Source of the DNA: Mergibacter septicus
Lineage (GTDB): Bacteria > Pseudomonadota > Gammaproteobacteria > Enterobacterales > Pasteurellaceae
Length of the DNA: 64,000 nt
Direction: 5' to 3'
Assembly: GCF_003265225.1 (NCBI RefSeq)
Contig: NZ_CP022013.1
Span: 310,001-374,000 of the forward strand
The translations under genes were made by a program, and so were the position numbers. Under the pieces are notes generated by a model, which was not told the origin of the DNA, did not search any database, and saw only the letters and a program-made list of their open reading frames with translations. Of the stretch, positions 2,136 through 60,486 are shown piece by piece. Each line of letters starts with the position of its first letter. Position 1 is the stretch's first letter.

Positions 2136-2989
2136 AAAATATTCATTTTTGTTAATGAATTGTGTTGAATTTTAACGTTTTTTCCTTTGGTTTGGAAATA
2201 TTTCCCTAATTGTTCAGCTACATAAACCGAACGATGTTTACCACCAGTGCAGCCGATTGCAATAGTGAGGTAGCTACGATTATTTTGTTCTAAGAATGGT
2301 AGCCAATTTTCAATATAGGTACGAGTTGAATAAATAAAATCATCTACTACTTTATGCTGTTGTAAAAATTGAATAATTTCAGGATCTTGCCCTGTAAATG
2401 AGCGTAGTTCCAGTTCCCAATGAGGATTAGGAAGAAAGCGTGCATCAAAAACATAATCTGCATCTTTAGGAATGCCGTATTTAAAACCAAAAGATTTCAC
2501 TACTATTTGTAACGCTTTATCACTTGAACCAAGTAACAACTGACGTAATTTTTCTGTCAGTTGATGAGTTGAAAGTGATGAGGTATCAATAATATTGTTA
2601 GCATATTGTAATAGTGGGGCGAGTTTTTCTTGTTCCAGTTCAATTGCTGTTTCTAAGGGTAACCCTTGTCCTGATAAAGGATGTAGGCGGCGAGTATCGC
2701 TATAACGCCGAATTAAGTTATTACTATCACAGTTTAGAAAAATAATTTTTGTTTGGCAGGTATTTGGTAATTGCTGTAATACACATTCTAACTCAGTTTG
2801 AGTTGGAGGTAGATTCCGAATATCTAAGCTAATAGCGGTAGCTTGTTTTTGTTGCGGAAGTTGGTTTAGGAGTTGAGGTATAAATTCTAGCGGTAGGTTA
2901 TCAATACAGTAGTAACCTATATCTTCTAAGGCTCTTAGTGCAACCGATTTTCCTGCACCAGAACGTCCGCTGATAATGATAAGCTCCAT
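2126..2989 (-). CDS. rapZ: RapZ, RNase adapter / nucleotide-binding protein
   Basis: Product of 287 residues, the usual RapZ length. It has a Walker A motif GRSGAGKS at residues 8-15 and a C-terminal domain with the conserved [10 protein letters not shown] signature near residue 247. In enterobacteria RapZ binds small RNAs that control glucosamine-6-phosphate synthase and hands them to RNase E; whether those RNAs exist here cannot be seen. The gene follows ptsN after 24 bases, the standard neighbour. The last codons (GAT ACG TAG) lie inside the tRNA-Arg gene, so the C-terminal residues Asp-Thr and the stop are encoded by tRNA acceptor-stem bases. The tail TKMNILDT differs from the RHRxLEK-type ending I recall for E. 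coli RapZ. Confidence 0.95.
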
Positions 2990-3013
2990 AATTCTACCTT
3001 TTACAATCTCGTG

Positions 3014-3541
3014 TTATGTTGGATTTGAGCCAACTAAAGTATCATTTTCTGCCAGTTCAGTAGGTGTTGTATTTTCTTTTGCTACCGCTTGCTGATCTGA
3101 TAAGGTAAATGCCATCCAGATTTCTTCAATATTAGATGCTGCACGAAGTTGCTTGCATAGATTTTTATCACTTAAGCGTTCGGCTAAACTTGGTAAAATT
3201 GAGGCACACTCGCCACAACAAGCTTCAGGAATCATAACAGCAAAAATCAGATCAACTTGGCGATGATCGGGGGCTTCATACTCAATAGGATTTTCAAGTT
3301 GGCAAAATACGGCAATCGGGTTGTTGCCTTGTGGTAATTTAGCGTGTGGAATAGCAATGCCATTATTAATCCCCGTATTGCCCATTTTTTCTCTTGTACA
3401 AAGGGCTTCAGAACAAGCAATTGGATCATCACCAGTTTGTTCTGCAATTAGATTAGCGATTAATTCAAAAATACGTTTTTTACTTGAGCTAATTAGCCCT
3501 TGACGAATGTTATTTATATCTAGTAATTGTGTAATTTGCAT
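3014..3541 (-). CDS. ptsN: PtsN, EIIA-Ntr phosphocarrier/regulator
   Basis: Product of 175 residues, slightly longer than the usual ~160. The active-site region NNGIAIPHAKL places the phosphorylatable histidine at residue 66. This is the IIA component of the nitrogen PTS, a cytoplasmic regulatory phosphorelay without known sugar transport. An odd feature is three close cysteines (EACCGECASI, about residues 107-116), where I recall non-cysteine residues in most homologues. The final ~20 residues (ENTTPTELAENDTLVGSNPT) form a polar tail. It lies 39 bases after lptB and 24 before rapZ; rpoN and hpf, which separate lptB and ptsN in E. coli, are absent here. Confidence 0.93.
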   Translation of the reverse strand: MQITQLLDINNIRQGLISSSKKRIFELIANLIAEQTGDDPIACSEALCTREKMGNTGINNGIAIPHAKLPQGNNPIAVFCQLENPIEYEAPDHRQVDLIFAVMIPEACCGECASILPSLAERLSDKNLCKQLRAASNIEEIWMAFTLSDQQAVAKENTTPTELAENDTLVGSNPT

Positions 3542-3580
3542 AAAAATGAGCTATGCTTCGTTTCAATAATACCGATTAAT

Positions 3581-4306
3581 TTAGAGTTTGAATTCGTGCC
3601 CTAAATAAACTTGTTTTACGATTTCATTATTTAGTATTTCAATTGGACTACCAGTGGCAATCACTTTGCCTTTACCTACAATATATGCTCTTTCACAAAC
3701 ATCAAGCGTTTCACGAACATTATGATCTGTGATTAATACACCAAGCCCTCGATCCCGTAATTCTTTAATGATATTTTTTATATCAATGACAGAAATAGGA
3801 TCGACACCGGCAAAAGGTTCATCTAATAAAATAAATTTAGGGTTGGCTGATAATGCTCTTGCAATTTCAACTCTTCGTCTTTCTCCCCCTGAAAGGGATT
3901 GCCCTAAATTATTACGAATATGTGTAAGGTTAAATTCTTCTAGTAGCTCTTCTGCTTTGTCTTTTTGTTGATTATCATCAAGATCTTGACGTAGTTGTAA
4001 GATAGACATTAAGTTGTCATAGACGGTTAAACGGCGAAATATTGAGGCTTCTTGTGGTAAATAGCCAATACCTTTTTTAGCACGTTGATGCATAGGTAAA
4101 GCACTAATATCTTGTTCATCAATTTTAATTGTACCACCGTCTTGGTGTACTAAACCTACAACCATATAGAAAGTCGTCGTTTTACCTGCACCATTTGGGC
4201 CTAACAAGCCGACAATTTCCCCTGAGCAAACATTTAAACTGACACCATTAACAACTTGGCGACCTTTATAACTTTTGGATAAATGTTCTGCTGATAATAC
4301 CGCCAT
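3581..4306 (-). CDS. lptB: LptB, LPS transport ABC ATPase
   Basis: Product of 241 residues, the standard LptB length. Walker A is GPNGAGKTT (36-44), the ABC signature LSGGE is at 138-142, Walker B FILLDEP at 158-164 and the switch histidine at about 195 (ITDHNVRE). LptB powers extraction of lipopolysaccharide from the inner membrane with LptF and LptG, and delivery through LptC and LptA. The gene starts 8 bases after lptA, in the conserved lptC-lptA-lptB order. Confidence 0.97.
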
Positions 4307-4314
4307 TATTGTTC

Positions 4315-4863
4315 CTATTGTTGTGTTGATTGTGGAGCTGTTTTTGGATTACGTGCTTGTTGTAATTGATTTGGTAAAAGCACTGTTTTTACTCTACTGC
4401 CATCAAAACCTGCTTTTAATTGCTGTTTTTTGACATCGTAAGTAATTAAATTACCACTAATTTTGCTATCTTGTTGTTGTAAAGAAGCGTTTCCGCTAAG
4501 TTGCAAAAATTCTTTTGCAACATCATAGTGCACTTTATCCGCTTTACCTTGGACAAGTTTACCATTATCAAGTTGTTGTTGAAATGTAACTGGCTTGCCG
4601 AAAGCTTCAATCAGATCAGTGTTTTTATTGTTATCTTTTTTATTTGAACGAATAATGATGACTTTATCTGCATTAATTTTCATAGAACCTTGAGTAATCA
4701 CTACCTGATCGGTAAAAGTAACTAAATTTTTTTCAAGATCAAGGGTTTGCTTATTTGAAACAACATTAATTGGTTGTTGGCTATCATTAGTCAGTGCAAA
4801 CAGGGTTGTGGTAGAAAACATTAATGCAAGTGTTAAGAAAATATGATTATGGCTTAATTTCAT
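4315..4863 (-). CDS. lptA: LptA, periplasmic LPS-bridge protein
   Basis: Product of 182 residues from the ATG at 4863. The frame is open further upstream, but the chosen start begins directly with a signal peptide ([20 protein letters not shown], cleavage expected after FALT or nearby), whereas the longer version would bury it. The mature part is an OstA-type beta-jellyroll: [16 protein letters not shown], then [17 protein letters not shown]. LptA polymerises in the periplasm to carry lipopolysaccharide from LptC to LptD. It overlaps lptC by 17 bases. The C-terminal tail ([12 protein letters not shown]) is polar and probably unstructured. Confidence 0.95.
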
Positions 4864-5410
4864 AAGATGTTTTAACCTGTTCTTTGAGGATCGCTGTTTT
4901 CGTGCGTAAGTTACCAATAAGTTTCTTGCCACTTGTAACAAAATTTTGTCCGATAATACTGGCTATTGTATCAGAAGTTATCTCTTGTGTCGTTAGGTTA
5001 ACTTCAGCTTGTTCAGTTTCAATTTTTTCTAATTTCGCATCAGGGGTTAGGTTTTGAATACGGACGTTTCCATTCAGCAAAAGATCGTTTTTTTTATTTA
5101 AAATAGCTTTGTCTGCTTTTAATACCCAGCTTTTGAGTATTTGACCATTATTCATTTCATAAATATATACTAAGGGCTTTTCAAAAATAGTTTGTTCGGT
5201 TTTAGCATAATATTTTACTGCGGTAGCACTGGCGACATACTGAATTGAACCATTAGGAGAATAGACGGTGGTACGCATATTTTTCCCAATATATTCAGGG
5301 GCATTGAGATCTGATGCGAGTTGTAAGGGTTGTGGTTGGTTTAGTGTATAAAACCAAGCCAGTAGTATAGCAGCAATAATAGCTAAAATAATATTCCAAA
5401 ATCTATTCAT
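4847..5410 (-). CDS. lptC: LptC, inner-membrane LPS transport protein
   Basis: Product of 187 residues with one N-terminal membrane anchor (about residues 5-23, FWNIILAIIAAILLAWFYTL) and a periplasmic jellyroll domain rich in beta strands. LptC receives lipopolysaccharide from LptBFG and passes it to LptA. TGAGGA sits just before the ATG at 5410. It is the first gene of the lptCAB-ptsN-rapZ run; the dld terminator lies upstream, so a promoter is expected between 5411 and 5490. Confidence 0.94.
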   Translation of the reverse strand: MNRFWNIILAIIAAILLAWFYTLNQPQPLQLASDLNAPEYIGKNMRTTVYSPNGSIQYVASATAVKYYAKTEQTIFEKPLVYIYEMNNGQILKSWVLKADKAILNKKNDLLLNGNVRIQNLTPDAKLEKIETEQAEVNLTTQEITSDTIASIIGQNFVTSGKKLIGNLRTKTAILKEQVKTSYEIKP

Positions 5411-5488
5411 AAATTCCTCAGCGATTAAGCAAGGGCGAATAATAGCATAATTTACTGAGTATCGTCATTGCCAGTGCATAGATTAGCG

Positions 5489-5530
5489 TAAAAAATCAAA
5501 GTGCGGAAAATATTAAACTATCCGCACTTT
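5489..5530 (-). terminator. Rho-independent terminator after dld, built from an inverted uptake-like word
   Basis: The arms AAAGTGCGGA (5498-5507) and TCCGCACTTT (5521-5530) form a perfect 10-bp stem with a 13-base loop. Read on the minus strand it is followed by a run of T's (A's at 5490-5495 on plus), 22 bases after the dld stop. The arm differs from the Haemophilus uptake word AAGTGCGGT only at the last base. Confidence 0.8.
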
Positions 5531-53517: not shown

Positions 53518-55005
53518 TTAAAAACTTCTTTCTAAACTAAAGAAGACACTGAATTTATCATAGCTATTAAAGACAACATTCGATTTATTTTTAATATATT
53601 GCAGATTCAAGGTTGGGTATAAACCGAAAATTTTAAAATCTTTTTTACTCAGACTTGAATACAACCCATATATTTTATCTTTTCTATTTTGATCGATTAA
53701 CACATATTTCCCTTTATAGCGTTTATCGGCAAAAGATAGATCTGTTTTGAAAAAGAGTTGATAAGGTAAATTCACCCCAATACCAGCGTTGATTTCTCGT
53801 CTAATATATTCATTGACCGCATAAATAGAGTGTTGGTTTAAATATTTCACCCCACCACGCAGATAAAAGTTATCAAAGAAATAATACAGATTATCTTTTA
53901 ATTCATAATAATAGCCATTGAGATATTGGCGATATTGATAATTTTGTCGTGCATATTCAAGGCTAAAATTATTTTTTATTCGAGTGGTAGGACTAAACCA
54001 AGTATTGAGTTGTACCCCTTTAGTGAGTAAATAACGGTGGTAGCTATCGGTTGGTATCGCCGTATTATCATAAATTTCACGATAAAAAGTCTGTTCAACA
54101 AAAGGTTTAAGACCAACACCACCCCAGCCATTTTCATATTCTAACCCTGTTTCAAAGCGAGCTGTGGCGTTACTGTATTTTTTCGCCGAAAAATATTCAA
54201 CCCCATACAGATTAGTTGACAATAAAGCAGAAAGTTGCGGTGCTAGAATAAAATATTTACTCAACCCAGCACTATAATTTAGTCCAAAACTAGAAACACG
54301 TTTTTCAGATGAAAAGCCCCCTACGGCGACCACATCTTTCGGCACGCCATTAATATTTTTATCTTGATTAATGAAAAAACTAAAATAAGAATTTAATTTT
54401 TGTTTATTATCAATAATTTCTAGCAACTCTTTAATATTCGGATTGTCTTTGTCGCTAGTAGATAATGCTTCGATATTCTTTTTCACTTGGTAATAATTTT
54501 TATTACCTAACAAAATATATTGTTCTTGTAGAAAAAGAATATTAAACCCCGGCACTTGTTTTCTTAATACGGCAAAATAGTCTAAAGACGGTTTAAAATC
54601 CCGTTGGTCTGCCAAAATAATCGCTTTCGCCCAGATATAGAGCAAAATATCGTTTTTATTTTGTTTATCAATTTTAACGCTAAAGATAGGCAACAATACC
54701 TGTAACGATTTTGCGTCCATTCGTTTTGCTGCATCAGTTAACGCCACCTCTAACAACCCTTTATTTTCTTGCAGGCTTTTCAACGAAATTGAAATGGCTT
54801 GATGGGGCAAGTTTTTCAGTTTATTGACGGGAATTTGCTCCGCTTTATGGTCTTGAAAACGTTCTGCATCAGATAAGGTGGGTTGGATATCACGATTTTG
54901 AATATGAACGGGTTGGGTTTCTGCTTTCAGCGTGCTTTGAACGCTCAGGTATAACAGGCAAGAAGATAGCAGGACAAGCCCTTTTTTAGGTGGTAATAAT
55001 TTCAT
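53518..55005 (-). CDS. Slam-type outer-membrane protein (surface lipoprotein assembly modulator)
   Basis: Product of 495 residues. A signal peptide (LVLLSSCLLYLSVQSTLKA) is followed by a periplasmic helical region with repeat-like pairs (about 60-210: EVALTDAAKRMDAKSLQVLL, LLYIWAKAIILADQRDFKPS), then a C-terminal beta-barrel of alternating aromatic strands (about 215-495) ending FSVFFSLERSF, the usual outer-membrane signature ending in Phe. This is the DUF560/Slam layout. Slams move specific lipoproteins to the cell surface. The gene lies downstream of a lipoprotein with the TbpB-like C-terminal barrel, separated by a terminator, so it probably has its own promoter. Partner identity is inferred from position. 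Confidence 0.85.
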   Translation of the reverse strand: MKLLPPKKGLVLLSSCLLYLSVQSTLKAETQPVHIQNRDIQPTLSDAERFQDHKAEQIPVNKLKNLPHQAISISLKSLQENKGLLEVALTDAAKRMDAKSLQVLLPIFSVKIDKQNKNDILLYIWAKAIILADQRDFKPSLDYFAVLRKQVPGFNILFLQEQYILLGNKNYYQVKKNIEALSTSDKDNPNIKELLEIIDNKQKLNSYFSFFINQDKNINGVPKDVVAVGGFSSEKRVSSFGLNYSAGLSKYFILAPQLSALLSTNLYGVEYFSAKKYSNATARFETGLEYENGWGGVGLKPFVEQTFYREIYDNTAIPTDSYHRYLLTKGVQLNTWFSPTTRIKNNFSLEYARQNYQYRQYLNGYYYELKDNLYYFFDNFYLRGGVKYLNQHSIYAVNEYIRREINAGIGVNLPYQLFFKTDLSFADKRYKGKYVLIDQNRKDKIYGLYSSLSKKDFKIFGLYPTLNLQYIKNKSNVVFNSYDKFSVFFSLERSF

Positions 55006-55282
55006 TTTATATTCTCAGTTAATTGATTAAAAGCGATGAAAGAATAACTCAAATTGAGATTAGTTTACCGAATTTACTATCTTTATGCTATCTAAATATC
55101 ACGCCATCGTTTGCAAACAGAGAGAAGAAAAATGCTGAATAATCCCTTTTGTCAACAGGCTTTTGGGTGGTGTGGTTAAGCCTAATTTAGCGAGATTACA
55201 AAGAATAAAAGCAAAAAAATACCAGCTTATATCGCTGGTATTTTTAAAGAAGTAAAAACGTCTATATTAAAGCAATCTATGC
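55006..55282. other. Gap between slam and the surface lipoprotein gene
   Basis: A 277-base non-coding stretch. It contains the lipoprotein terminator (55213-55245) and should contain the slam promoter, which I cannot place with confidence. Nothing else recognised. Confidence 0.5.
55213..55245 (-). terminator. Terminator after the surface lipoprotein gene
   Basis: AAAAATACCAGC and GCTGGTATTTTT form a perfect stem (55215-55245) with a 7-base loop; on the minus strand a run of seven T's is available. Confidence 0.82.
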
Positions 55283-56875
55283 TTATTTAGCAGTTTCAGA
55301 TGCAGAACCTGCATAAACTCCACCGATTTTGCCTTGAGCATCTCCACTGCTACTATCAGTATAAATAATACCACTGGTACCTTTTCCACCAGCTCCGTTT
55401 AATTGTCCATCAAATTTAAGTGATGAACTTTTCCAAGAGTCCATTGATGTAGGAGCTGTTGTAATTGTTACTGTACCTGAAAATGAGCTTTGTCCATTAG
55501 TGCTTGCATTTAATGTTAATTCTAAGTGGTTAGTATTATCATTTCCAATGTTAATTGTTCCAGTAAAACTATTGGCTGAAGTATTATATTTACCTGTAAA
55601 ATCTCCTACATGATAGCTTCCTTGCTCATCAGTAGTTTTAGTCCAAATAATGGATTGTCCTTTATAGTCTAAGTTAGATGAAGGCATTGATGTAGATTTA
55701 ACCCCAAAGGCTAATAATTCTTTACCGTTACTACCTAAGTAAGAATCACCACCAACATTGACTAAGAATTTAGGAGGATTTTTACCATTGGCATTTACGA
55801 AGTCATACATATTTTTGTTATCAGCTAAGTCGTTTGCTTCTATACTTCCATCCAAAGAAACTGTTACAGTTGTTTTTCCATTTTCTTGCTTGATTTTTAC
55901 TTGGTGTTTATCAACAGTGGTAGAGTAATTCCTTTTGGAAAAATCTACACCATAACCTAAAACATAATCACCTTCACTACTTGCCGCTTTTTTAGCGTCT
56001 TCAACATTTTTATTTAAATCTGATAATAGTTTTTCAGCTTGGGTTTTGTCGATAAAAGATAAGCCATCGAGTTTTGGATCTTGTTTAGGTGCAGGATTAT
56101 TAGTTGGAGGGAATGGTCTCCAATATTCTTGTCCATCATTACTTTCATAAGACTCAATTACTCGACCGTTATCATAAACTATTTTAGTTTTTCCATAGCT
56201 ATCAGTGGTGCTAGAGACTGGTTTAGCACCCGGGACTTTAGGTAATTGATCTGCTGTTTTACCGTTTTCAAATCTTTTTTCTTCTACTTTCTTCTCTGGA
56301 GTAACTGCAGGTGCTGGAGTAGTTGTTGTAGCAGTAGCAGTTACTGTTGCAGGTTCAGTTGCTACTTCAGTCTCTGCAGCTTCAGCTGTTTCTACTGTAG
56401 GTTCTACCACAGAACGTTTGCCTCTGATACGACCCGGGCGTCTGTCTGGGAAGCTATGCGGTGTGCTCTCTACAACTGTCGCTGCGGCATCATCGCTATT
56501 TTCATTGACAGGCGTCTCTTGTCTAGCAATATCTTCATAACCGTAACCCTCATTGCCTTTTGAATCACCGTGTATAATTCTTCTTGATCTTGAATCTGGC
56601 GTTAAATGAACGTGGGTGATATTTTCTTCCGCTGTTGCTTTTTCTGTATTGCTAGCAGTGTCAATGGTGCTTTCAGCAGGAGTATCAACAGCGTTATCTG
56701 CTAAGCGAGCAGTTGAAGTGGTTGTTGAAGTATTTGATTGTGGCTTAGGATTGATAACAACGGTGTTATCTTTAGGTAAATTTGCGTGGCTACTACTACC
56801 ACCGCCTGAACCGCCAGAACAACCAGTTAAGCCTAAAATAATTGATATGGTTAATGCCAATCCTGTCTTTTTCAT
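55283..56875 (-). CDS. Slam-type surface lipoprotein with TbpB-like beta-barrel
   Basis: Product of 530 residues. A lipoprotein signal peptide ends in LTGC (Cys19), followed by a Gly/Ser linker (SGGSGGGSSS), as in surface-displayed Slam substrates. Residues ~30-270 are low-complexity and Thr/Ala/Glu-rich. The C-terminal ~200 residues form strands (YHVGDFTGKYNTSANSFTGT, LELTLNASTNGQSSFSGT) and end with GKIGGVYAGSASETAK, the GxFxG-type end of the TbpB barrel family. The ligand is unknown: transferrin, haem carrier or other. No TonB-dependent receptor gene is adjacent. The gene lies upstream of slam on the same strand. Confidence 0.82.
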   Translation of the reverse strand: MKKTGLALTISIILGLTGCSGGSGGGSSSHANLPKDNTVVINPKPQSNTSTTTSTARLADNAVDTPAESTIDTASNTEKATAEENITHVHLTPDSRSRRIIHGDSKGNEGYGYEDIARQETPVNENSDDAAATVVESTPHSFPDRRPGRIRGKRSVVEPTVETAEAAETEVATEPATVTATATTTTPAPAVTPEKKVEEKRFENGKTADQLPKVPGAKPVSSTTDSYGKTKIVYDNGRVIESYESNDGQEYWRPFPPTNNPAPKQDPKLDGLSFIDKTQAEKLLSDLNKNVEDAKKAASSEGDYVLGYGVDFSKRNYSTTVDKHQVKIKQENGKTTVTVSLDGSIEANDLADNKNMYDFVNANGKNPPKFLVNVGGDSYLGSNGKELLAFGVKSTSMPSSNLDYKGQSIIWTKTTDEQGSYHVGDFTGKYNTSANSFTGTINIGNDNTNHLELTLNASTNGQSSFSGTVTITTAPTSMDSWKSSSLKFDGQLNGAGGKGTSGIIYTDSSSGDAQGKIGGVYAGSASETAK

Positions 56876-57068: not shown

Positions 57069-57845
57069 TTATTTATTTTCAACAAGAATAATTTTAATTC
57101 CATTATTTAATAGTTGTTGATGGATATTATCACTAATCCTCGTATCGGTAATGATGGTGTTAATTTTATTTAGCGGGCAGACAATATTAGGACTTTTACG
57201 ATTAAATTTTGATGAATCTGTGAGGAGAATAATTTGTTTTGCTGCTTTACACATTGATTTACTGACACCGTGTACCTCATTAAAGGTGGTAGAGCCGAGA
57301 TGAACGTCAAAGCCATCGGCACCAATAAATAATTTATCAAAAGAAAATTGTTCAAAGGTTGATTCGGCTAAATTACCGTGAAAAGACCCCGATTTTGATC
57401 TAAAAGTGCCACCACACATTAGTAATGAATAATTTTTATTTAAATTGGCTAAGCTATTAATAATATGCAAGCTGTTGGTCATAATGGTAAGGCTTTCAAG
57501 AGCAGATAAAAATGGTACCATTTGGAGGACGGTACTGCCAGCGTCCATAATCATTGAATCGCCTTCATCAATTAATTGAACGGCTGCTTGAGCGATCTTC
57601 TTTTTTATTTGTAGATTAATATTGGTTTTATTGGTGAGTGGTAGGTCTAATTCATCATTGGTAACAGGTACAACACTGCCGTAAGTCCGTAGCACTTTTT
57701 GTTCGTTTTCTAAAATTGTTAAATCTTTCCGAATGGTTGCACCTGTTGTATTAAATAGGGTTGCTAAAGTATCAACTGGGGTTTTGCCATTAAGTAGAAG
57801 ATAGTCCAAAATTGCTCGTTGCCTAGCATATGGTTTAATTTTCAT
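57069..57845 (-). CDS. srlR: SrlR/GutR, DeoR-family glucitol operon repressor
   Basis: Product of 258 residues. The N-terminal DeoR helix-turn-helix is RQRAILDYLLLNGKTPVDTL, then LFNTTGATIRKDLTILE. The C-terminal sugar-phosphate sensor domain has MIMDAGSTVLQMV and DKLFIGADGFD. It would repress the sorbitol operon in the absence of the sugar. Last gene of srlAEBD-gutM-srlR; the flanking palindromes at 61083 and 61150 are its candidate operators. Confidence 0.92.
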   Translation of the reverse strand: MKIKPYARQRAILDYLLLNGKTPVDTLATLFNTTGATIRKDLTILENEQKVLRTYGSVVPVTNDELDLPLTNKTNINLQIKKKIAQAAVQLIDEGDSMIMDAGSTVLQMVPFLSALESLTIMTNSLHIINSLANLNKNYSLLMCGGTFRSKSGSFHGNLAESTFEQFSFDKLFIGADGFDVHLGSTTFNEVHGVSKSMCKAAKQIILLTDSSKFNRKSPNIVCPLNKINTIITDTRISDNIHQQLLNNGIKIILVENK

Positions 57846-57872
57846 AAAGTTGTTTCCTGCATAAGCGTTGCG

Positions 57873-58232
57873 TTATGTTACTTTTAAAGCCTCCCTAAGG
57901 GCTTGTTGACAAGCCAAATTTTTGGGAAAGATCTGACAAGGGTTTATCTCATCATAGTTTAATCCCTGTAATTGCGGTATTTTCTTAGGGCGAGAAAAAA
58001 CAGTATATCCTTGCATTAATAATGAATTGATAACACGGTTATTTTGATCAAAAACAATAGCAATTATGACTTTAGGTTTAAATCGACAGGAATATCTGCC
58101 AATGCCAATTTTTCCTTGTGTAGATAAATGCCTAAATGCTCGATTAAAATTAGAAATTTGCCACCACCCTAAGAGGATTTGTAGCAACCATGCCATTATT
58201 GCAAGAAAAATGAGTACATTAATATTATTCAT
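57873..58232 (-). CDS. gutM: GutM, glucitol operon activator
   Basis: Product of 119 residues: one N-terminal membrane segment (VLIFLAIMAWLLQILLGW) followed by a GutM domain (RFKPKVIIAIVFDQNNRVIN, ending LACQQALREALK). In E. coli GutM activates the operon, though how a membrane protein does so is not clear. It lies between srlD and srlR, as in E. coli. Confidence 0.9.
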   Translation of the reverse strand: MNNINVLIFLAIMAWLLQILLGWWQISNFNRAFRHLSTQGKIGIGRYSCRFKPKVIIAIVFDQNNRVINSLLMQGYTVFSRPKKIPQLQGLNYDEINPCQIFPKNLACQQALREALKVT

Positions 58233-58321
58233 GATTTTCTAAGTATCGCATAAAGTAAAAGAAATTTGGTGAATTTCAAATATAAAATGAAAGAAACTCA
58301 CCATTATTTGATCAAGATAAA

Positions 58322-59110
58322 TTAAAACATAACTTGTCCACCAGTGATATTAATTGATTGCCCCGTGCAATATGAAGCTTGCTCGCTAGCATAAAATAAT
58401 AAAACGTTTAAGACATCTTGGTAATCACAACCACGTTTTAGAGGGACTTTATCAATATAGGTTTGTTCTACTTGTTCTGGCTTGATCCCTAATTTTTTGG
58501 CATATTGAGGAATAAGTGATTGAAACATCGGTGATTTTAGTAAATTCCCTAACATTAATGAATGGACTGTAATGCCATATTCTGCAAGGTCTAGTGCCAG
58601 TGATTGCGTTAACCCAACGCCTGCAAATTTAGCTGCACTATAACCTGAATTATATTTGCTGCCGACTTTGCCAGATTTTGAGTTAATTTGGATAATACGT
58701 CCTTTTATGCCGTATTTAATCATTAATTTCGCAAACTCTCTTGCCGTTAGAAAATAGCCAGTTAAGTTTACTTTGACTGAGGTATTAAAGTCATTGAGTG
58801 CAAAATCGGTGATAGGTGATGCTTTAGCAAAACCTGCATTATAGACCAGTAAATCTACTCGCCCAAAGGTGAGATCGATATTGTTAGCTAAATCAATTAC
58901 ACTGTTTTCATCTGTGGCATCGACATAAAACCCTTGGGCTGCTTCTGGTCCGTAGTTTGAGCAAATGGTGGTTGCAATTTGTTTTGCATTATCTAGTTGC
59001 AGATCCGCTACTGCAACACGATAGCCTTGAGCGGCTAATCCTTGACAGAGAAAGGCACCTAGAGTTTGCCCACCGCCTATCACAACAGCTACTTTTTGTG
59101 TATTCATCAT
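58322..59110 (-). CDS. srlD: SrlD, sorbitol-6-phosphate 2-dehydrogenase
   Basis: Product of 262 residues, a short-chain dehydrogenase. NAD-binding VVIGGGQTLGAFL at the N-terminus, DLLVYNAGFAKAS, and the active YSAAK with Ser upstream (INSKSG). It converts sorbitol-6-phosphate to fructose-6-phosphate. AAGG precedes the ATG at 59110. It lies 17 bases after srlB. Confidence 0.95.
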   Translation of the reverse strand: MMNTQKVAVVIGGGQTLGAFLCQGLAAQGYRVAVADLQLDNAKQIATTICSNYGPEAAQGFYVDATDENSVIDLANNIDLTFGRVDLLVYNAGFAKASPITDFALNDFNTSVKVNLTGYFLTAREFAKLMIKYGIKGRIIQINSKSGKVGSKYNSGYSAAKFAGVGLTQSLALDLAEYGITVHSLMLGNLLKSPMFQSLIPQYAKKLGIKPEQVEQTYIDKVPLKRGCDYQDVLNVLLFYASEQASYCTGQSINITGGQVMF

Positions 59111-59127
59111 AGTATAACCTTTATATT

Positions 59128-59490
59128 TTATTTTGTTTTAAATGTTAAAGTTGAACCAACAGTTAATGATGGTATTTCTCCTGCACAATGAATTGCACCA
59201 GAGGTAATGGCGTTCTCCGCCTGATCAAAACAAATGGTAAGATGCCCTAATTCTTTCAAATTGAAAGATGCTATATTACCTACCGCAGTAATTTGATAGG
59301 CGTGTTGATCGATCACCAACCAATCTCCAACTTCAATATTTTGGCTTAATTCACCGTGGCGATGAAGAAAACAATAATCAGCAAGGTCAGGTGGTACTTG
59401 TTCGTTAAACGTAATAAACATTTTTTCGGATAAAGCATCTTGTGCGAAACGACCGATTTGGGTTATCTGGGTTTGATAGAAAATTGTCAT
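59128..59490 (-). CDS. srlB: SrlB, glucitol/sorbitol PTS EIIA
   Basis: Product of 120 residues of the PTS glucitol IIA family: IFYQTQITQIGRFAQDAL, CFLHRHGELSQNI with the candidate phosphohistidine region, and LTICFDQAENAITSGAIHCA. It passes phosphate from HPr to the IIB domain of SrlE. It lies 18 bases after srlE. Confidence 0.94.
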   Translation of the reverse strand: MTIFYQTQITQIGRFAQDALSEKMFITFNEQVPPDLADYCFLHRHGELSQNIEVGDWLVIDQHAYQITAVGNIASFNLKELGHLTICFDQAENAITSGAIHCAGEIPSLTVGSTLTFKTK

Positions 59491-59508
59491 ACTGTTACCT
59501 CAGAGATT

Positions 59509-60486
59509 TTAGTAAATAAAGGCAGAAACAAACCACGCTAATAAGACGGTTGGTGCACCAGTTAAGAAACGCCCGACTAGCACTGAGGGGACACCGACTC
59601 TTACGGTATCTTGTTTTGCTTCAGCCATAGAGAGTCCAACAGGGATAAAATCACAAGCCGCTTGGGAATTGATGGCGAATAATGCTGGCAATGCTAATTG
59701 TGGTGGAATGTTGCCTAACCCTATTTGTACGCCGACTAAAACGCCTATTACTTGAGCAATCACTGCCCCCGGACCGAGAAATGGCGATAAGAAAGGAAAG
59801 GAACAGATTAATGCGAGAAGGACTAAACCAATAGGATTACTAGCAAGAGGTGTTAAACCGTGAGCAATCCAATTACCTAGACCAGAAGCAATGATAATAC
59901 CGATTAAGGCAGACACAAATGCCATAAAAGGTAAGATCGTTTTTAAGACGGTATCAATAGTATCTCTGCCAGCTTGAAAGAAAACAGCGACAATAGATCC
60001 CATTCCTAGTCCTATTTTGGCTAGTAATCCGTCAGATTGCTCACTGATTTTTTGCTGTGTATTGTACTCTTGTTGTAGTGTTGATGGCTTGGCTTGAGGA
60101 GCTGAACTTGGTACTTCTTGTTCAATTAAGCGAATGTTTTCAACATTCACACCAGAAACATAGATCGATTCAGTGATGAACTGTGCGAGTGGTCCTGATT
60201 TTCCAGTAGCGTGAATATTGATAGTAGGAATTTGACGTTTTGGATATAGTCCACAACGTAGTGTGCCGCCACAATCAATCACCGCAATACCAATTTCTTC
60301 TATTGGTGGTTCACCATTTTTAAATCCATCTACTGCTTGCCAGCCTGTTAATTCGACAAGTTTATCTACTATGCTAGGTTTACTTCCTGCGGTCATATAG
60401 AGAATTTTTTTGTTAGGTGCTATTTCAAGGGTTAATGGACCACCCCAACCAGATTGACCTTTTTCAATATAAAGTTTTGATGCCAT
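59509..60486 (-). CDS. srlE: SrlE, glucitol/sorbitol PTS EIIBC
   Basis: Product of 325 residues. The N-terminal IIB part has [20 protein letters not shown] with candidate phospho-cysteine C72 (or C78), then [17 protein letters not shown] Gln/Ser-rich linker precedes the IIC half with about five membrane segments and [20 protein letters not shown]. It imports and phosphorylates sorbitol together with SrlA. Confidence 0.95.

What the first reader, a model, noticed from the sequence alone, without database searches (positions are those of the whole stretch)
53518..56875. Slam and TbpB-like surface lipoprotein pair without a receptor gene
A barrel protein with the Slam layout lies downstream of a lipoprotein with a Gly/Ser surface linker, a long Thr/Ala/Glu-rich stalk and a TbpB-type C-terminal barrel. 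The usual TonB-dependent partner (TbpA-like) is missing, so the ligand is open: haem carriers, host factors or complement regulators are possible. The stalk-plus-single-barrel design may be a new Slam substrate class. Best candidate in this window for an undescribed system.
Basis: partly seen in the sequence, partly recalled or inferred. Interest (0 to 1): 0.65.

Follow-up and report, generated by a model that had tools for sequence, protein, structure and literature searches.

The report
Slam and orphan surface lipoprotein pair
A Haemophilus-family bacterium carries a gene pair for putting a long, stalked, probably host-binding lipoprotein on its surface; the arrangement is already known in this family, although this particular lipoprotein has no close relative in the databases searched.

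Summary
Window 53518-55005 (-) is a genuine Slam (type 11 secretion outer-membrane translocon): Pfam SlipAM E 6e-48 plus the Slam TPR domain. Upstream, 55283-56875 (-) encodes a 530-aa lipoprotein with lipobox LTGC, a Gly/Ser linker, a ~180-aa Thr/Ala/Glu-rich stalk and a C-terminal handle plus eight-stranded barrel of the TbpB/NHBA/fHbp type. Pfam misses the barrel, but a profile of 29 Slam-adjacent lipoproteins, an AlphaFold model and Foldseek recover it. No TonB-dependent receptor is nearby. The genome's only one is a TbpA-like protein 1.1 Mb away, with its own TbpB, Slam and TonB-ExbB-ExbD. Receptor-less Slam-lipoprotein pairs are common in Pasteurellaceae: 23 of 30 named barrel loci here, and published P. 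multocida PmSLP, which binds complement factor I. Lipoproteins with a disordered N-terminus and a barrel are a described cargo class, and Neisseria NHBA has the same layout. New here are an orphan sequence, an unusually long stalk with two arginine islands, and the most divergent Slam of 81 compared. Best reading: a Slam-dependent surface lipoprotein that captures a host molecule for immune evasion or adhesion, not nutrient import. New member of a known kind.

The parts
55283..56875 (-). Surface lipoprotein gene (SLP), 530 aa
   Evidence: ORF and translation; no full-length relative in 140 family genomes, in genome contigs or in plasmids
56819..56875 (-). Lipoprotein signal peptide and lipobox LTGC, Cys19
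   Evidence: Sequence read directly; fits the published [LVI][ASTVI][GAS]C lipobox (PMC10075479)
56276..56818 (-). Gly/Ser linker and T/A/E-rich, probably disordered stalk (residues 20-200)
   Evidence: Composition; no secondary structure and pLDDT about 30-48 in the single-sequence model
56579..56590 (-). Arginine island RSRR in the stalk (residues 96-99)
56414..56443 (-). Arginine island RRPGRIRGKR in the stalk (residues 145-154)
   Evidence: 6 basic residues in 12, shuffle p 0.019; highest Arg-only window among the lipoproteins compared
56081..56275 (-). Small beta module (residues 201-265)
   Evidence: Four strands at 219-254, pLDDT 70-82 over about 201-250 even without an alignment
55673..56080 (-). 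Helix plus handle/pedestal region (residues 266-401), low confidence
55301..55672 (-). C-terminal eight-stranded barrel, TbpB/NHBA type (residues 402-525)
55215..55245 (-). Terminator-like hairpin between the two genes
   Evidence: 12-pair stem then a T-rich tail; such sites are also expected by chance in this region (4 found, mean 2.7 in shuffles)
53518..55005 (-). Slam (T11SS outer-membrane translocon), 495 aa
   Evidence: PF04575 E 6.4e-48 and PF24575; relatives in 127 of 140 family genomes
54481..54795 (-). Slam N-terminal TPR domain (residues 71-175)
53521..54387 (-). Slam C-terminal barrel (residues 207-495)

Best explanation
A Slam/T11SS cargo-translocon pair. The lipoprotein is exported by Sec, lipidated at Cys19 and carried by Lol to the outer membrane, then moved to the outer face by the neighbouring Slam, which recognises the C-terminal barrel. 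On the surface, the long flexible stalk holds the handle-barrel head (and exposes the arginine islands) away from the membrane, where it captures a soluble or matrix host molecule (a complement regulator or a polyanion such as heparin) for immune evasion or adhesion. It is not a co-receptor for nutrient import. Shown by sequence: Slam, lipobox, barrel, pairing, no dedicated TonB receptor. Inferred: Slam dependence, surface display, ligand type.
For: Slam domains. Barrel homology from an independent profile and phmmer, model and Foldseek matches to TbpB, NHBA, HphA and weakly PmSLP. The genome's only TonB-dependent receptor is TbpA-like and already sits with TbpB, Slam, TonB, ExbB and ExbD elsewhere. 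Receptor-less pairs are common in relatives. Precedents: PM1514/PM1515 Slam-dependent display (PMC5449769), PmSLP binds factor I (PMC12080921), NHBA binds heparin through an Arg-rich region (PMC7857515). No Fur-like site above chance upstream.
Against: No experiment; the ligand is not inferable from sequence. The barrel lacks the usual GxFYGxxA motif. The handle is modelled with low confidence and the model used TbpB-like sequences as its alignment, so fold evidence is not fully independent. A terminator-like hairpin and a 277-bp gap (relatives mostly 20-130 bp) separate the genes. NHBA display in E. coli was not substantially influenced by Slam1 (PMC5500766), so a stalked barrel lipoprotein need not depend on Slam.
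Confidence: 0.62

Rival explanations
1. NHBA-like polyanion binder: the arginine islands in the stalk bind heparin, chondroitin sulfate or DNA, and the barrel is mainly the Slam export tag. Host or bacterial proteases may clip at the RSRR or RGKR sites and release the head. (A narrower version of the best explanation.)
For: Same order of parts as NHBA: disordered N-terminus, Arg-rich stretch, beta module, single barrel (PMC7857515, PMC6104945 abstract). The highest target-normalised TM-scores in the Foldseek list are NHBA C-terminal domains (6cuj 0.68-0.74, 5o1r 0.75).
Against: Arg clustering is modest (shuffle p 0.019). The islands lie about 250 residues before the barrel, and the stalk has no sequence similarity to any known protein. 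The stalk is acidic overall (28 D+E against 18 R+K).
Confidence: 0.2
2. Nutrient co-receptor that shares the distant TbpA-like receptor, or an orphan haem-binding protein of the hemophilin type.
For: Same superfamily as TbpB and hemophilin; the genome has a TonB-dependent receptor.
Against: That receptor has its own two-barrel TbpB and its own Slam in one cassette. No Fur-like site above chance upstream of the SLP. Single barrel, long stalk.
Confidence: 0.12
3. The two genes are neighbours by chance: the Slam serves another cargo (for example the TbpB), and the lipoprotein reaches the surface by another way.
For: 277-bp gap and terminator-like hairpin between the genes; the Slam is very divergent; NHBA display in E. 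coli was not influenced by Slam1 (PMC5500766).
Against: The other cassette has its own Slam; adjacency of barrel lipoprotein and Slam is common in the family (30 of 48 named loci).
Confidence: 0.1

Closest known systems
Pasteurella multocida PmSLP (PM1514) and its Slam (PM1515)
   Same: Pasteurellaceae lipoprotein with handle and barrel beside a Slam; PmSLP serves complement evasion rather than nutrient uptake (PMC5449769, PMC12080921); weak Foldseek match to 9b3e
   Different: No full-length sequence relative of the window lipoprotein in 140 family genomes, only weak N-terminal matches; the window protein has a longer stalk with arginine islands
Neisserial heparin-binding antigen (NHBA, GNA2132)
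   Same: Disordered N-terminus with Arg-rich stretch, beta module and single C-terminal barrel (PMC7857515); barrel match TM 0.68-0.75 by target
   Different: Arg islands far from the barrel, an extra helix/handle region, a Slam gene next door, no stalk homology
T11SS cargo class 'disordered N-terminus 1' (PMC12282271)
   Same: Lipoprotein with elongated disordered N-terminus before handle and barrel, beside a T11SS gene
   Different: Sequences of that class were not available here for direct comparison
TbpB / TbpA-Slam-TonB cassette (second locus in the same genome, 1.471-1.479 Mb)
   Same: Lipoprotein with TbpB-type barrel plus Slam
   Different: Two barrels, a TbpA-like receptor and TonB-ExbB-ExbD present

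Membership tests
Slam / T11SS outer-membrane protein | C-terminal SlipAM (DUF560) barrel | tested here: met
   PF04575 E 6.4e-48, residues 207-495
Slam / T11SS outer-membrane protein | N-terminal TPR domain | tested here: met
   PF24575 35.8 bits against cut-off 35.2, just above the cut-off
Slam / T11SS outer-membrane protein | Translocates a cargo to the surface | not testable with these tools
   Needs surface labelling with and without slam
Slam-dependent surface lipoprotein | Lipobox signal peptide | tested here: met
   LTGC at residues 16-19
Slam-dependent surface lipoprotein | C-terminal eight-stranded TbpB/fHbp-type barrel | tested here: met
   Independent profile 11.3 bits, 0 of 2000 shuffles; model and Foldseek. 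Below Pfam detection
Slam-dependent surface lipoprotein | Gene adjacent to a Slam | tested here: met
   277 bp apart, same strand
Slam-dependent surface lipoprotein | Surface display depends on Slam | not testable with these tools
   Experiment needed
TbpB (transferrin co-receptor) | Two handle-barrel lobes | tested here: not met
   A single barrel region
TbpB (transferrin co-receptor) | TbpA-type receptor gene beside it | tested here: not met
   The only receptor is at about 1.473-1.476 Mb
NHBA | Disordered N-terminus followed by beta module and single barrel | tested here: met
NHBA | Conserved Arg-rich region that binds heparin | tested here: inconclusive
   Two arginine islands, clustering p 0.019, no binding data
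PmSLP (factor I binder) | Sequence or fold similarity of handle and barrel | tested here: inconclusive
   Foldseek 9b3e E 2e-3, TM 0.40-0.48; handle modelled with low confidence

The most novel reading that the evidence does not exclude
An NHBA-like, protease-clippable polyanion-binding surface lipoprotein outside Neisseria, displayed by a dedicated, highly divergent Slam that has co-evolved with an orphan long-stalk cargo.
Probability: 0.17. Interest if true: 0.45.

Novelty: new member of a known kind. Interest (0 to 1): 0.24.

Why it matters
Slam-dependent lipoproteins are vaccine antigens and immune-evasion factors in Neisseria and Pasteurella. An orphan cargo paired with the most divergent Slam in the sample (27% identity at best in the tree alignment) is a useful test of how Slam recognises cargo and how far the barrel signal can drift. 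The system itself is already described.

Tried and rejected
Pfam, NCBIfam and PDB sequence searches with the lone lipoprotein gave nothing usable. Single-sequence AlphaFold was poor (mean pLDDT 39) and its Foldseek hits were rejected as meaningless. Search for relatives of the lipoprotein in genome contigs and plasmids: none. Fur-box search upstream: no better than chance. Weak hits in three family genomes cover only the N-terminal ~130 residues and were not taken as homology. The PF00593 match at 408.8 kb is a FadL-type protein, not a receptor. Placement of the window Slam in a tree is unresolved: its end branch is 5.95 and no supported group holds it. Naming the host organism: the database leaves out the window's own genome.

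Full report
Observation. The downstream one (53518-55005, 495 aa) is a Slam: Pfam SlipAM PF04575 E 6.4e-48 and the Slam TPR domain just above its cut-off. The upstream one (55283-56875, 530 aa) is a lipoprotein: MKKTGLALTISIILGLTGC, then SGGSGGGSSS, then a T/A/E-rich stalk.

The barrel. With the lone sequence Pfam, NCBIfam and PDB searches are silent. I therefore collected lipoproteins beside Slams in 60 stretches of the window's own and family genomes, built a profile of the last 175 residues of 29 of them, without the window, and searched the window protein: a colinear match over residues 389-505. Against controls, the window C-terminus scores 11.3 bits; no shuffle of 2000 reaches it (best 10.9). 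Of 480 natural proteins scored, 7 exceed it, and those seven have far stronger scores (63-165 bits) and look like further barrel proteins; the next natural score is 4.7. phmmer finds a Slam-adjacent lipoprotein at E 4e-7 in a set of 54. An AlphaFold model of residues 266-530 from an alignment with 22 barrel sequences from named loci shows eight strands, with pLDDT mostly 72-96, at residues 402-525. Foldseek matches are TbpB (E 2e-7), the NHBA C-terminal domain (target TM 0.68-0.75), hemophilin and, weakly, PmSLP and fHbp. Caution: the alignment contains TbpB-like sequences, so the model is not independent of the homology claim; the profile test is. The handle (residues 266-401) is modelled with low confidence.

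The missing receptor. No receptor lies beside the pair. Genome-wide, PF00593 gives one true match and PF07715 one, both the same gene at 1.473-1.476 Mb, a TbpA-like protein by PDB comparison (E 8e-94). It sits in a complete cassette: two-barrel TbpB-like lipoprotein (622 aa), receptor (862 aa), second Slam, TonB, ExbB, ExbD. So the window lipoprotein has no dedicated receptor anywhere in this genome.

How unusual is it? In 48 Slam loci fetched with organism names, 30 have a barrel protein and 23 of those have no receptor within about 6 kb; receptors were recognised by phmmer similarity to two TbpA-like proteins, so other receptor types could be missed, and a few of the 30 barrel calls are weak. 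The paper that predicted Slam cargo found receptors in only 120 of 185 clusters and showed Slam-dependent display of P. multocida PM1514 (PMC5449769); that protein, PmSLP, binds complement factor I (PMC12080921). A later survey describes a cargo architecture with an elongated disordered N-terminus (196 lipoproteins; PMC12282271), and NHBA has disordered N-terminus, Arg-rich region, beta-hairpin and barrel (PMC7857515). The stalk-plus-single-barrel design is therefore not a new class.

What is distinctive. The lipoprotein has no full-length relative in 140 family genomes, genome contigs or plasmids, with the limits of those searches. It has the longest pre-barrel part of the receptor-less single-barrel proteins in the sample: about 320 residues when measured as for the others (372 when counted to the modelled barrel), against a median of 96.5 and a maximum of 273 in 50 proteins. 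Two arginine islands lie in the stalk; the larger has the highest arginine density among the compared proteins, with a modest shuffle p of 0.019 for basic residues. The Slam has the longest end branch of 81 in a tree (5.95, best identity 27%), so its placement is unresolved; a class-wide sample gave nothing closer. The genes are 277 bp apart with a terminator-like hairpin between them, unlike most relatives (20-130 bp), which suggests partly separate expression (inference).

Mechanism. Established for the family: Slam moves unfolded lipoproteins across the outer membrane with help from the chaperone Skp (PMC9090332), and the barrel is postulated to be the recognition signal (PMC12080921). Inferred here: the same route for this lipoprotein, with the stalk as spacer and the handle-barrel head or arginine islands as the binding surface. 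Lack of a receptor, presence of a separate TbpAB system, and no Fur-like site above chance argue against nutrient uptake and for immune evasion or adhesion. The ligand cannot be named. Slam dependence itself is not guaranteed: NHBA display in E. coli was not influenced by Slam1 (PMC5500766).

Verdict. Observation confirmed; interpretation partly supported; new member of a known kind; interest 0.24.

Noticed in passing
G000:C1:1471000-1479300 (L039:5240-13299): Complete TbpB-TbpA-like-Slam-TonB-ExbB-ExbD cassette in the same genome; its receptor is the only TonB-dependent receptor found in the genome.
   Followed up: yes
L046:10236-18001 (same locus as L105, Mesocricetibacter intestinalis): At least five, probably seven, lipoprotein genes in tandem downstream of one Slam; no Pfam barrel hit in the two tested.
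   Followed up: partly
L130 (Haemophilus influenzae HI-5290, 2326-5514): TbpA- and TbpB-like genes beside the Slam appear broken into several short ORFs.
   Followed up: no
L138:5671-7133 (Actinobacillus vicugnae): Slam gene split into two overlapping ORFs, possibly a frameshift.
   Followed up: no
L041, L044, L049, L050, L051, L053, L056: Slam genes without a barrel lipoprotein beside them recur at a conserved place next to a HAD-type hydrolase ORF (protein start ...FFDIDETLYYKKE); their cargo must be elsewhere.
   Followed up: no
window 57069-60486: DeoR-family regulator, short-chain dehydrogenase and what look like sorbitol-type PTS genes directly upstream of the pair; no sign of a functional link.
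   Followed up: no
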